Positions 6,051 through 16,406 of a stretch of DNA of 20,911 bases are shown here, in pieces; position 1 is the stretch's first letter, and each line of letters starts with the position of its first letter. A model generated the notes under the pieces. That model worked only from the letters and a program-made list of their open reading frames with translations, had not been told where the DNA came from and searched no databases. Source of the stretch: a bacterium (GTDB taxonomy: Bacteria > Planctomycetota > J058 > JAJDCP01). The stretch is taken from positions 1-20,911 of the forward strand of contig JAUIEM010000155.1 in assembly GCA_030428695.1 (NCBI GenBank), read 5' to 3'. Position numbers and translations under genes: made by a program.

Positions 6051-6938
6051 GTGGACAGCGAGCTGAGCTTCTCCATCATCGTCCCCACCTACGACCGGCC
6101 CGCCGCCCTCCGCGCCTGCGTGCGCTCCCTGCTCGCCCTCGACTTCCCCGCCGCCCGCTACGAGATCCTGGTCGTCGACGACGGCAGCCCCGCGCTCCCG
6201 TCGTTCGAGCGCCCGGCGGGCGGCCCGCGGCTCGAGCTCTTCCGCCGCCGCCATCGCGGGCCGGCGGCGGCCCGCAACCACGGCGCGGGGCAGGCGCGCG
6301 GCACCCACCTCGCGTTCATCGACGACGACTGCCGCGCCGAGCCCGACTGGCTGCGCGTGCTCGAGGGACGCTTCCGGACCAGCCCCGCCGCGATGCTCGG
6401 CGGCCACACCCTCAACGAGCTGGCGGACAGCGTCTTCTCGGCGACCTCCCAGCAGATCATCGACTACCTCTACGGCTACTTCCACGAGCCGCCGCGGCAG
6501 GGGCGCTTCCTGACCTCGAACAACCTCGCCCTGCCCCGGAAGCGCTTCGTCGAGCTCGGCGGCTTCGACGACCGCTTCACCCGCGCCGGGGCGGAGGACC
6601 GCGAGCTCTGCGACCGCTGGCTGCGGCGGGGGTGGGAGATGGACTACGTGGCCGCGGCCCGCGTGCGCCACGCCCACCGCCTCGACCTCGTCGGCTTCCT
6701 GCGCCAGCACTTCCGCTACGGCCAGGGCAACCGCCGCTTCCACCAGCTGCGCGACAAGCTGCACCTGCCCTCGGAGCGCTACCAGCCGCCGGGCTTCTAC
6801 CTCGGGCTGCTCGCCCACCCGCTGCGGCGCGAACGCGCCCCGAAGGCCTGGCTCGGTGTCGGCCTGACCGCCGCCGCCCAGCTGTCGACCGCGGCGGGCT
6901 TCTTCTGGGAAGGCGTGCGCCCGGAGGAGGCGCGGTGA
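6051..6938 (+). CDS. Family 2 glycosyltransferase
   Basis: The protein has 295 residues. GTG 6051 is preceded by a purine-rich GGAGGGGAGGGAG (6033-6045), and the frame begins directly with the GT-A fold: 'FSIIVPTYDRPAAL' and 'ILVVDDGSP' (residues 39-47). The nucleotide-sugar/metal motif 'AFIDDDCRAEPDW' has DDD at residues 91-93, and the catalytic-base region 'GGFDDRFTRAGAEDRELCDR' has ED at about 182-183. These are the GT2 hallmarks of inverting transferases using UDP/GDP-sugars. A weak hydrophobic stretch near the C-terminus (about 255-285) may tether it to the membrane. Its stop overlaps the NRPS start (GTGA, 6935-6938), so the two proteins are made together. It may glycosylate the NRPS product or a lipid carrier handled by the neighbouring flippase; the sugar and acceptor cannot be read from sequence. 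Confidence 0.9.
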   Translation: MDSELSFSIIVPTYDRPAALRACVRSLLALDFPAARYEILVVDDGSPALPSFERPAGGPRLELFRRRHRGPAAARNHGAGQARGTHLAFIDDDCRAEPDWLRVLEGRFRTSPAAMLGGHTLNELADSVFSATSQQIIDYLYGYFHEPPRQGRFLTSNNLALPRKRFVELGGFDDRFTRAGAEDRELCDRWLRRGWEMDYVAAARVRHAHRLDLVGFLRQHFRYGQGNRRFHQLRDKLHLPSERYQPPGFYLGLLAHPLRRERAPKAWLGVGLTAAAQLSTAAGFFWEGVRPEEAR

Positions 6939-13647: not shown

Positions 13648-16406
13648 CGGTGGCCCTCCAGTCCGGCCAGCTTCCGCCGCAGATGTCCGGCGATCCAACC
13701 GCAGAGCGGCTCCTGCAGCATCGCGATGCCGTGGACCGAGGGCACGTCGACGACCTCGACCGCGGCGGCGAAGTCCTCCCAGCCGAGGGTCCGCGCGCGC
13801 CACAGGGCCGGAGGTTGCAGCGCGGCCCGGTACAGGGTCAGCGGCAGGTCGAGCGGACGCGCGACGTAGCGCGTCCGGGCGCGCTCGCGGCGGGCCTCGG
13901 TCTCCGGGTCGGGGGGCGCGCCGCGGGCCCGTCCCAGGCTGACGCGCCAGTCGAGCAGCCGGGCGCGGAAGAAGGCGGCGCGACGCTCCCGCGGCAGGCG
14001 CAGCAAGCGGCCGAGCTGGACCGGCAGGCGCAGGGCCGTGTGCCAGGCGACCTGCACCCATTCGGGGGTGCGGATCGCGCGGGTGTCGCCGAGACCCGGG
14101 CCGAGGGTGTCGACCAGGCCGAGGAAACCGACCCGCCGCCCGCTCGCGAGCAGCTGCCGGGCGAGCTCGAAGGCGACGAGCCCGCCGTAGGAGAAGCCGA
14201 GCAGGGCGTAGGGCCCGTCCGGTTGCGCCTGCAGCAGCGCGGAGAGCTGGCGCGCGGCCATCTCCGGGAGGTCCGGAACCGCCGCCGAACCGAGGCCGAG
14301 CACCCGCTGGCCGGGCAAGTGCTCGAGCAGCTCGCGGAAGACCTCGGGCTTGTCGACGCAGCACAGCGGCCTGCCCCGGCCCGGAGCGAGCTCGAGCAGG
14401 GGGCTCGGGGGAAGCTCCGCGCGCAGCAGGGCGGCGAGGCCGGCGACGCTGGGGGCGTGCAGCATCGACTCCGGCAGGACCTCCCGCCCGAGCGCGCGGC
14501 CGAGGCGGGCGCAGACCTCCGCGGCCTGGATCGAGTCCCCGCCGAGCTCCCAGAAGCTGCGCGCGTCGTCCTCGACCGGAGCCCCGAGGACGGCGGCGAA
14601 GCTCGCCCGCACCAGCGCGTCCAGCGGCGCGGCAGGCGGCGCGGCAGCCGAAGTCCGCGCCGTCCCATTCCCCGGCACCAGGTCCCCGACGGGCGCGTGG
14701 GCGATCTTCCCGGTCGCCTCCCCCCCCTCCGCGACCAGGTCCCCGACGGGCGCCTGGCGGGCGAACTTCCCGGTCGCCTCCTCCCGCTCCCCCACCAGCT
14801 CCCCGACGACCTGGCGAGCGAACTTCCCGGTCGCCTTCCCCCGCCCCCCGACGCGCGCCTGGTCGATCTTCCCGGTCGCCTCCCCCCGCTCCGCGATCAG
14901 GTCCGCGATGAGCGCCTGGCGGTCGATCTTCCCGGTCGCGGTCAGCGGCAGCGCCGCGTGGCCCCGCACCCGCCCCGGCAGCATCCGCGCCGGCAGCTTC
15001 CCCGCCAGCCGGACGCGCAGGCCGGGGGCTGCGGACTCCGGCGCGACGCAGGCGACCAGCTCGTGGCCGGCCCCCTGCGGCACGGCGAGGAGCGCCGCCT
15101 CGCGCACCCCGTCCAGGGCGAGCATCGCGCCCTCGATCGCGCTCGGCTCGAGCCGGTGGCCGCGGACCTTGAGCTGGGCGTCGGCCCGCCCGCAGTGCTC
15201 GAGCATGCCGTCGGGACGCGCGCGCAGCAGGTCCCCGGTGCGGAAGCCGGGGCCGCGCGGACCGTCGTAGAACCGCCGGCGGCTCTCCTCCGTGTCGTGC
15301 CAATAGCCGTCGGCGAGGAAGGCGCTCTCGACCTCGAGGGCGCCGACCGCCCCGAGCTCCACCGGCTGCCCGTCGGCGTCGACCAGCCGCAGGCGCTTGT
15401 CCGCGACCCCGCGGCCGACCGGCAGCCGCTGCTCCGCGGGCCAGTCGCCCTCGACCGTCCAGCTCGCGACGTTGCTGGTCTCGGTCGCCGAGAAGCGGTG
15501 GGCGAGGGCGACGCCGGCCGGGAAGAGCTGGCGCACACGGGCGGCGTCGGCCCCGTACAGCGGCTCGCCCGCCAGCGCGATCAGCCGCAGGGCGGGCGCC
15601 TCGCAGGCCAGCCCGCGCTCTTCCCACAGGCGCAGGGCGCGGCGGAACCAGCTGACCGGCGGGTGCAGCAGGCTGACCCCGGTGCGGCGGATCCAGTCCG
15701 CGAAGTCGAGCATATCGAGCCGCGCCAGCCGCGCGGGCACCAGCGCCGCGCCGTTGAGCAGCGCGCCCCAGACGTCGGCCTCGGCCGCGACGAAGCTGCA
15801 GGAGAACAGGTGCGACTGCCGGTCCGCGGGGAGGATGCGGCGGGCCGCCGTATACAGCCAGATGCGGTGGAGGATGCAGCGCTGGCTGCGCACGACCCCC
15901 TTGGCGCGCCCGGTGCTGCCCGAGGTGAAGACGATGCTGGCCGGACTGCCCGGATCGCCTCGCGGCCGAGGACGCTCCGCCGGCGCCAGATGGTCGACGG
16001 CGTGGGCCCGCGGCGCGAGCAGCCGCGCCTGCGCGAGCAGGGCGTCGCTGGTCCACAGCGCCGGCGTCCCGAGCCTGTCCAGGAGCGCGCGGTTCCACTC
16101 CGCCGGCGCCGCCGGATCGAGGGCCACGCAGGCGCGGCCGGCCTTCAACGCCCCGAGCAGGGCCGCGATCTGCCAGGGACCGTGCTCGAAGAGGAGCGGC
16201 AGCGGCCCGCCGCTGTCGCCCTCCGCGCGAAGGATGCCCGCGGCGACGCCGTTGGCGCGGGCCTCGAGCGCGTCGTAGCTCCAGCTCCCGTCGTCCAGCA
16301 GCAGCGCCGGACGCGCGCCGAAGCGGTCGACGGCGCGTTCGAAGCGGGCGGCGAGGGTGCTCTCCACACCGGCGCGGTCGAGCAGGCTGCAGGCGCGGGC
16401 TTCCAT
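13644..16406 (-). CDS. NRPS-like A-T-TE protein
   Basis: The protein has 920 residues. ATG 16406 has GGAAGGA just upstream and starts right at the A-domain N-terminus; the frame stays open further upstream without protein-like character. The A domain (about 10-500) has A3 'IVFTSGSTGRAKGV' (158-171), an unusual A5 'HRFSATETS' in place of N-x-YGPTE, A7 'FRTGDLL', A8 'GRADAQLKVRGHRLEP' and A10 'LPLTATGKIDRQ' (Lys493). The A4 region reads 'CSFVAAEADVWG', with Val205 where alpha-amino-acid activating domains have Asp, so the substrate may be a hydroxy, keto, aryl or other acid. T contains 'WELGGDSIQA' (Ser625). The TE has Ser739 in 'GFSYGG', Asp766 in 'LGLVDTLGP' and His892 in 'VHGIAMLQEP', a complete type I triad. 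The C-terminal TE should release or cyclise the product. A stand-alone role like fungal and bacterial A-T-TE synthetases is the alternative. Confidence 0.92.
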   Translation of the reverse strand: MEARACSLLDRAGVESTLAARFERAVDRFGARPALLLDDGSWSYDALEARANGVAAGILRAEGDSGGPLPLLFEHGPWQIAALLGALKAGRACVALDPAAPAEWNRALLDRLGTPALWTSDALLAQARLLAPRAHAVDHLAPAERPRPRGDPGSPASIVFTSGSTGRAKGVVRSQRCILHRIWLYTAARRILPADRQSHLFSCSFVAAEADVWGALLNGAALVPARLARLDMLDFADWIRRTGVSLLHPPVSWFRRALRLWEERGLACEAPALRLIALAGEPLYGADAARVRQLFPAGVALAHRFSATETSNVASWTVEGDWPAEQRLPVGRGVADKRLRLVDADGQPVELGAVGALEVESAFLADGYWHDTEESRRRFYDGPRGPGFRTGDLLRARPDGMLEHCGRADAQLKVRGHRLEPSAIEGAMLALDGVREAALLAVPQGAGHELVACVAPESAAPGLRVRLAGKLPARMLPGRVRGHAALPLTATGKIDRQALIADLIAERGEATGKIDQARVGGRGKATGKFARQVVGELVGEREEATGKFARQAPVGDLVAEGGEATGKIAHAPVGDLVPGNGTARTSAAAPPAAPLDALVRASFAAVLGAPVEDDARSFWELGGDSIQAAEVCARLGRALGREVLPESMLHAPSVAGLAALLRAELPPSPLLELAPGRGRPLCCVDKPEVFRELLEHLPGQRVLGLGSAAVPDLPEMAARQLSALLQAQPDGPYALLGFSYGGLVAFELARQLLASGRRVGFLGLVDTLGPGLGDTRAIRTPEWVQVAWHTALRLPVQLGRLLRLPRERRAAFFRARLLDWRVSLGRARGAPPDPETEARRERARTRYVARPLDLPLTLYRAALQPPALWRARTLGWEDFAAAVEVVDVPSVHGIAMLQEPLCGWIAGHLRRKLAGLEGHR
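14700..14945 (-). repeat. In-frame multiplication of the A10 (ATGK) segment in the A-T linker
   Basis: Five copies of plus-strand CTTCCCGGTCGC begin at 14706, 14766, 14823, 14868 and 14928 (spacings 60, 57, 45 and 60, all multiples of three). In the protein these are the genuine A10 'TATGKIDRQ' (Lys493) and four downstream copies: 'EATGKIDQ', 'KATGKFARQ', 'EATGKFARQ' and 'EATGKIAH' (Lys513, 528, 547, 567). Each is followed by related 'VGDLVAEGG'-type spacer. The array therefore grew by duplicating the end of the A domain plus adjoining linker. Confidence 0.88.

What the first reader, a model, noticed from the sequence alone, without database searches (positions are those of the whole stretch)
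6935..16406. Compact three-module NRPS split across two convergent genes, with no A domain for module 2
Seen: the plus-strand protein is A-T-C-T-C and the minus-strand protein is A-T-TE, with all catalytic motifs present (two HHxxxD, three T serines, complete TE triad). Established: a complete C module normally has C-A-T. Inference: the line is A1-T1, then C1-T2 with T2 charged in trans (by A1, the other A domain or an outside enzyme), then C2 donating to the A-T-TE protein. This makes the last module split between C and A onto separate proteins on opposite strands. The expected product is a three-unit peptide or depsipeptide. I do not recognise this combination with a TauD oxygenase, sulfotransferase and glycosyltransferase.
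Basis: partly seen in the sequence, partly recalled or inferred. Interest (0 to 1): 0.75.

Follow-up and report, generated by a model that had tools for sequence, protein, structure and literature searches.

The report
Two-protein NRPS with A-less module
This stretch encodes a small two-enzyme peptide assembly line whose middle unit has no loading domain of its own and whose last unit seems to load something other than a normal amino acid; each trick is known from other pathways, and three relatives of the first enzyme were found.

Summary
The plus-strand protein (6935-11872, 1645 aa) is A-T-C-T-C; the minus-strand protein (16406-13644, 920 aa) is A-T-TE; catalytic motifs are intact. The missing A domain is real: only 29-38 residues separate C1 and T2 in the four A-T-C-T-C proteins found (relatives 37-62% identical to the window's).

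One correction to the reading: that adenylation domain has Val where GrsA has Asp235, so it probably does not activate an ordinary alpha-amino acid. The third unit is more likely a hydroxy acid or other non-alpha-amino acid, or the A-T-TE works alone on a keto acid. A1 has one code in all four proteins and is the best candidate to charge both T1 and T2, as shown by experiment for capreomycin CmnA-A1/CmnI. TauD and sulfotransferase genes follow the A-T-TE gene with overlaps.

A-less modules loaded by another A domain, and lines divided over several proteins, have precedents. I rate it a new variant of a known kind. Product, substrates, host, and any A domain outside the window remain unknown.

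The parts
6935..11872 (+). NRPS protein 1, A-T-C-T-C, 1645 aa
6956..8377 (+). A1 adenylation domain, Asp235 kept, nine-residue code DVRHFALLA (identical in 4 of 4 A-T-C-T-C proteins)
8380..8722 (+). 18-bp tandem repeat array (19.1 copies) coding the A1-T1 linker; absent in the three relatives
8795..8992 (+). T1 carrier domain (GGDSL)
9038..10273 (+). C1 condensation domain, HHIAFDAW
10361..10564 (+). T2 carrier domain (GGHSL) without an A domain of its own; 29 residues after C1
10592..11857 (+). C2 condensation domain at the C-terminus, HHLVADCF
13644..16406 (-). NRPS protein 2, A-T-TE, 920 aa
14898..16364 (-). A3 adenylation domain, Val at GrsA-235, Arg at 322, HRFSATE in place of the usual A5 motif
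14676..14939 (-). 57-60-bp tandem repeats coding repeats of an A10-like ATGK(I/F) stretch in the A3-T3 linker; not seen in the six aligned relatives
14418..14612 (-). T3 carrier domain (GGDSI)
13656..14342 (-). TE, GFSYG plus conserved Asp and His; best solved match EntF TE
12721..13647 (-). TauD-family dioxygenase with an HSE stretch; start overlaps the A-T-TE stop (GTGA)
11877..12743 (-). Sulfotransfer_3 sulfotransferase; start overlaps the TauD gene by 23 nt
6057..6938 (+). GT2 glycosyltransferase (start approximate); end overlaps the A-T-C-T-C start

Best explanation
One short assembly line on two proteins. A1 activates one amino acid and loads it on T1 and, because module 2 has no A domain, also on T2 of the same protein. 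C1 joins the two. C2 hands the dipeptidyl unit to the building block on T3 of the A-T-TE protein; that block is probably not a normal alpha-amino acid but a hydroxy acid or other nucleophile-bearing acid, since A3 lacks Asp235. The TE releases a three-unit product, which the dioxygenase, the sulfotransferase and perhaps the glycosyltransferase decorate. Shown: domain order, intact motifs, reality and conservation of the A-less module, pairing of the two proteins on contigs, Val at position 235. Inferred: who loads T2, that C2 uses T3, substrates, order of tailoring, product.
For: Domain order and motifs. Four A-T-C-T-C proteins; family C1 and family C2 each form one group in a 329-row C-domain tree (SH-aLRT 96 and 99; quick method, no bootstrap), so the order looks inherited. 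In a 53-row tree the A domains of the three paired A-T-TE proteins fall in one clade of eight (97/96), apart from the 22 other A-T-TE rows; the other five of the eight are A-T proteins without TE, which could hardly release a product alone (last step inferred). A1 code DVRHFALLA in 4 of 4. C1 and C2 match Txo1/Txo2 and PCP-C didomain structures (elongation type, recalled) far better than VibH or cyclisation domains. Precedent: CmnA-A1 loads A-less CmnI (PMC12400406). Loss of Asp235 goes with alpha-hydroxy, alpha-keto and aryl acids (PMC11253843 passages).
Against: No test shows that A1 loads T2; an A domain outside the window is not excluded. Val at code position 1 is also called the mark of alpha-keto acid A-T-TE enzymes (PMC10316625 passages), and a bare keto acid gives C2 no nucleophile; no ketoreductase turned up among the window proteins scanned. 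McyG shows Val there in an enzyme listed for Phe. P0007 is no closer to the window's A-T-TE (36%) than four unpaired A-T-TE proteins (36-37%), so full-length identities do not show the pair diverging in step; only the A-domain tree groups them.
Confidence: 0.44

Rival explanations
1. The A-T-TE works on its own, like the A-T-TE quinone and furanone synthetases: it activates an alpha-keto acid and its TE dimerises it. The A-T-C-T-C then makes a separate dipeptide passed to a soluble acceptor or a carrier elsewhere.
For: Val at code position 1 is reported to mark alpha-keto acid A-T-TE enzymes (PMC10316625 passages). In a set chosen by similarity, 47 of 48 A-T-TE A domains lack Asp235.
Against: Five of the eight rows in its A-domain clade are A-T proteins without TE. 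TE best solved match is EntF TE. A3 has Ala at the fifth code position, where polyporic acid synthetases have Ile or Val; the atromentin residue was not compared.
Confidence: 0.22
2. T2 is charged by a separate A or A-T protein encoded outside the window, possibly with an acyl-transfer step as in syringomycin, so the middle unit differs from the first.
For: Trans-acting A domains are known (PMC7539972, start of abstract in a search listing; SyrC, a cited title in PMC12400406). The window covers only 20.9 kb.
Against: No further A domain in the window. One A1 code in all four proteins fits, but does not prove, that A1 serves the line.
Confidence: 0.28
3. Monobactam-like pathway, as sulfazecin: three NRPS modules plus sulfotransferase plus oxygenase, with the TE forming a beta-lactam.
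For: Same gene types: two NRPS proteins, sulfotransferase SulN, nonheme iron oxygenase SulO (PMC11298585 passages).
Against: SulM TE uses an active-site Cys; here it is Ser. Sulfazecin's last A domain takes L-Dap, an alpha-amino acid; A3 lacks Asp235. SulM TE (8W2C, 8W2D) is not among the chains named in the list of 35 solved matches of this TE. No methyltransferase among the proteins scanned.
Confidence: 0.04

Closest known systems
Capreomycin/viomycin NRPS (CmnA, CmnI, CmnF, CmnG)
   Same: A module without its own A domain, loaded by the first A domain of the line (CmnA-A1); CmnI has a T and a C-terminal C domain; line divided over several proteins (PMC12400406, first of three parts read)
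   Different: Five modules, cyclic pentapeptide; the A-less piece is a separate protein, so loading is in trans
Fungal A-T-C-T-C NRPS
   Same: Same five-domain order (PMC6563098, one passage); related fungal siderophore NRPS load A-less T domains from upstream A domains (stated in PMC12400406)
   Different: Fungal; no A-T-TE partner mentioned in the passage; sequence not compared
A-T-TE quinone/furanone synthetases (HapA1, atromentin synthetases; bacterial RalA, EchA)
   Same: A-T-TE order, Val at first code position (PMC10316625 passages)
   Different: Those work alone on aromatic alpha-keto acids; here the contig also carries a C-ended NRPS. Their sequences were not compared
Sulfazecin NRPS (SulI/SulM) with SulN and SulO
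   Same: Two NRPS proteins, three modules, sulfotransferase and oxygenase
   Different: TE nucleophile Cys there, Ser here; last unit L-Dap there, while A3 here lacks Asp235; no A-less module mentioned in the passages read

Membership tests
Iterative-A-domain NRPS (capreomycin type) | A module with C and T but no A domain | tested here: met
   29, 30, 32 and 38 residues between C1 and T2 in the four proteins
Iterative-A-domain NRPS (capreomycin type) | Another module's A domain loads the A-less T | not testable with these tools
   needs a loading assay; precedent only
A-T-TE alpha-keto acid synthetase | A-T-TE order | tested here: met
A-T-TE alpha-keto acid synthetase | Val at first position of the A code | tested here: met
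A-T-TE alpha-keto acid synthetase | Acts alone and dimerises its substrate | not testable with these tools
   contig pairing and TE-less kin speak against it but do not exclude it
Monobactam (sulfazecin) pathway | TE with active-site Cys | tested here: not met
   GFSYG, Ser; Cys2818 in SulM
Monobactam (sulfazecin) pathway | Last A domain specific for the alpha-amino acid L-Dap | tested here: inconclusive
   Val at 235 argues against; substrate not measured
Monobactam (sulfazecin) pathway | Sulfotransferase in the cluster | tested here: met
   PF13469, E 1.1e-10; relation to SulN not tested

The most novel reading that the evidence does not exclude
A distinct bacterial family of minimal two-protein synthetases: a single amino-acid A domain loads two carriers of its own A-T-C-T-C protein, and a Val235 A-T-TE protein supplies a hydroxy acid as acceptor and releases a sulfated depsipeptide. 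Then A-T-TE proteins lacking Asp235 would be not only keto-acid dimerisers but also last modules recruited by C-ended NRPS.
Probability: 0.26. Interest if true: 0.55.

Novelty: new variant of a known kind. Interest (0 to 1): 0.4.

Why it matters
It departs from one-module-one-A-domain in a very small system (two proteins, three carriers), which makes it a convenient place to test how one A domain may serve two carriers in cis and how a C-ended protein finds an A-T-TE partner. It also suggests that A-T-TE proteins without Asp235, usually read as stand-alone keto-acid dimerisers, may sometimes be the last module of an NRPS line.

Tried and rejected
Rejected: assembly slip or lost A domain (four conserved proteins, no remnant). 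Rejected as a family: monobactam pathway (Ser TE). Unlikely: C2 as a VibH-like amide synthase (best solved matches 290 to 205 bits, VibH 60 bits); fungal terminal C domains were not tested as a class. The C-domain tree held few DCL and E references (12 and 9 of 329), so I claim no LCL or DCL subtype.

Surveys with the C2 profile: 392, 282, 297, 288 and 298 genomes by phylum sample plus 4 by handle, 1561 in all with a few seed genomes counted twice. Nothing above 342 bits was listed (lists cut at E 1e-85, 1e-90, 1e-100), against 459-496 bits for family members scored with themselves left out. Only 4-6 candidates per genome were scored in the large calls, so absence is not proven. Host: a neighbour protein gave no match at E 1e-5 in the same 392 genomes; the exporter's best relative is 59%, unnamed, and named ones after it come from mixed phyla. 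No tRNA or Rfam hit. Viral scan: none. Plasmids: 36-42% over at most 29% of protein 1, 29-35% over at most 59% of protein 2, none for the sulfotransferase. A plasmid search with the Mesorhizobium A-T-TE P0008 gave 151 records, all under 60% identity, and was not followed up. The A1 code string is in none of the held papers. A search for NRPS, sulfotransferase, glycosyltransferase, TauD and split module gave one paper, on the PRISM software (listing only). One paper search was left unused. Structure prediction and fold search were not used.

Limits: the protein searches listed 120 of 1840 and 120 of 2831 hits, from about 8000 scored candidates each, so further members may exist. Code positions were mapped by alignment to LgrA with GrsA numbering that I recalled; the A3 string (VAAHAARVA) differs from my hand mapping at 278, 330 and 331, so of A3 only 235, 236, 239, 299, 301 and 322 are firm. 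The label 'serine' for codes like DVWHISLVD, the elongation role of the Txo and PCP-C structures, and the dimerising role of RalA/EchA are recalled.
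Full report
Observation. The window holds an A-T-C-T-C protein on the plus strand (6935-11872, 1645 aa) and an A-T-TE protein on the minus strand (16406-13644, 920 aa). A six-frame scan finds two A, three T, two C and one TE domain and no more. Two HHxxxD motifs, three carrier serines and a conserved Ser/Asp/His set in the thioesterase are present. 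Between the two genes, on the minus strand, a TauD dioxygenase gene overlaps the A-T-TE stop and a Sulfotransfer_3 gene overlaps the TauD gene; a GT2 glycosyltransferase gene overlaps the A-T-C-T-C start. From the overlaps I infer that dioxygenase and sulfotransferase are transcribed with the A-T-TE, the glycosyltransferase with the A-T-C-T-C.

The A-less module is real. Among the 120 best listed of 2831 hits to the A-T-C-T-C protein, three have the same order: P0121 (62% on the alignment), P0165 (37%) and P0145 (40%). Classing 241 rows (the 240 listed proteins, the window's A-T-TE included, plus the window's A-T-C-T-C) gives 4 A-T-C-T-C and 47 A-T-TE. By HMM borders 29, 30, 32 and 38 residues lie between C1 and T2 in window, P0121, P0165 and P0145, too few for an A domain. 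In a tree of 329 C domains (quick method, SH-aLRT only) the four C1 domains form one group (96) and the four C2 domains another (99). The smallest supported group around family C2 (95) adds four C domains of an Amycolatopsis locus, one of which is followed by a T with no A domain; by path length a Streptomyces row is slightly nearer.

The two proteins probably belong together. One other length, 13,566, is shared between the two tables by other NRPS proteins. For P0145 (8,263-bp contig; its start lacks about 50 residues in the alignment) no partner is listed. Overall identities do not add to this: P0007 is 36% identical to the window's A-T-TE, but four unpaired A-T-TE proteins are 36-37%. A tree of 53 A domains does: the three paired A-T-TE proteins (window, P0002, P0007) fall in one clade of eight (bootstrap 97, SH-aLRT 96), with five A-T proteins that have no TE; the 22 other A-T-TE rows lie elsewhere. 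A-T kin without a TE are hard to square with a self-contained keto-acid dimeriser (inference).

Substrates. A1 keeps Asp235 and has the code DVRHFALLA in all four A-T-C-T-C proteins; 14 further A domains of the 727 compared have the same string. I cannot assign it; it shares D, V, H and L with codes such as DVWHISLVD (recalled as Ser). A3 has Val at 235 (CSFVAAEADVW) and Arg at 322 in HRFSATE. None of the 38 A domains with HR at that place has Asp235, and 47 of 48 A-T-TE A domains lack it; the set was chosen by similarity, so these are not population figures. A review ties loss of Asp235 to alpha-hydroxy, alpha-keto and aryl acids, with Val in McyG, listed for Phe (PMC11253843 passages). Val at the first code position is said to indicate alpha-keto acid A-T-TE enzymes (PMC10316625 passages). 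A further paper says keto-acid A domains typically replace Asp235 by an aliphatic residue, its own HcaB being an exception (PMC10949194 passages). So the third unit is probably not a normal amino acid.

Mechanism. C1 and C2 match Txo1/Txo2 and PCP-C didomain structures best, so C2 should need a carrier-bound acceptor; T3 is the only candidate in the window. An acceptor must carry a nucleophile, so a hydroxy acid or a non-alpha amino acid on T3 fits both C2 and Val235; a keto acid fits Val235 but not C2. T2 must be charged from elsewhere, and the simplest source is A1. That is established chemistry: CmnA-A1 loads the carrier of A-less CmnI in capreomycin biosynthesis, and fungal SidD, Nps6 and SidC are said to rely on upstream A domains (PMC12400406, first of three parts and passages). 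Fungal A-T-C-T-C proteins exist (PMC6563098, one passage).

Comparison. Sulfazecin shares the gene types, but its TE uses Cys and its last A domain takes L-Dap (PMC11298585 passages); here the TE has Ser and A3 lacks Asp235, so I do not file it there. One targeted paper search for the gene combination gave only the PRISM software paper, which is weak evidence that it is undescribed.

Distribution. No family member was listed in 1561 genomes searched by phylum sample or handle, within the limits told under Tried and rejected. Members score 459-496 bits when left out of the model; the best other match listed in those genomes was 342, and 356 among the proteins. The host is unplaced; G+C is 75-79% in the 1-kb windows from 6001 to 16000.

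Verdict. Real and conserved; each odd feature is known singly elsewhere; the set as a whole was not found described in the searches made. New variant of a known kind, interest about 0.4.

Noticed in passing
8380-8722 and 14676-14939: Both A-T linkers, one per NRPS protein, are expanded by tandem repeats (18-bp units x19; 57-60-bp units repeating an A10-like ATGK stretch). The aligned relatives lack both.
   Followed up: partly
6956-8377: The A1 code DVRHFALLA recurs in 14 other A domains of the 727 compared, among them NRPS of Nostoc, Fictibacillus, Nannocystis and Streptomyces, so a shared unassigned substrate may be common.
   Followed up: partly
14898-16364: The A3 clade holds five A-T proteins of about 620 aa without TE (P0013, P0015, P0019, P0031, P0049) on unnamed contigs; their partners are unknown.
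   Followed up: no
3330-5911: Aspartyl/asparaginyl beta-hydroxylase-like protein (PF05118), a second possible tailoring oxygenase, beside a polysaccharide-type flippase and a cupin.
   Followed up: partly
16686-20635: Run of pilin-like genes (N-terminal methylation motifs, a DUF7305 protein), apparently genome background next to the cluster.
   Followed up: no
3-1862: Partial MMPL/RND-type exporter; best relative 59% on an unnamed 77,446-bp contig, the rest listed at 37-46%, named ones from mixed phyla.
   Followed up: partly
L001: Amycolatopsis thailandensis NRPS with a C-T stretch lacking an A domain; its C domains join family C2 in the smallest supported outside group.
   Followed up: no
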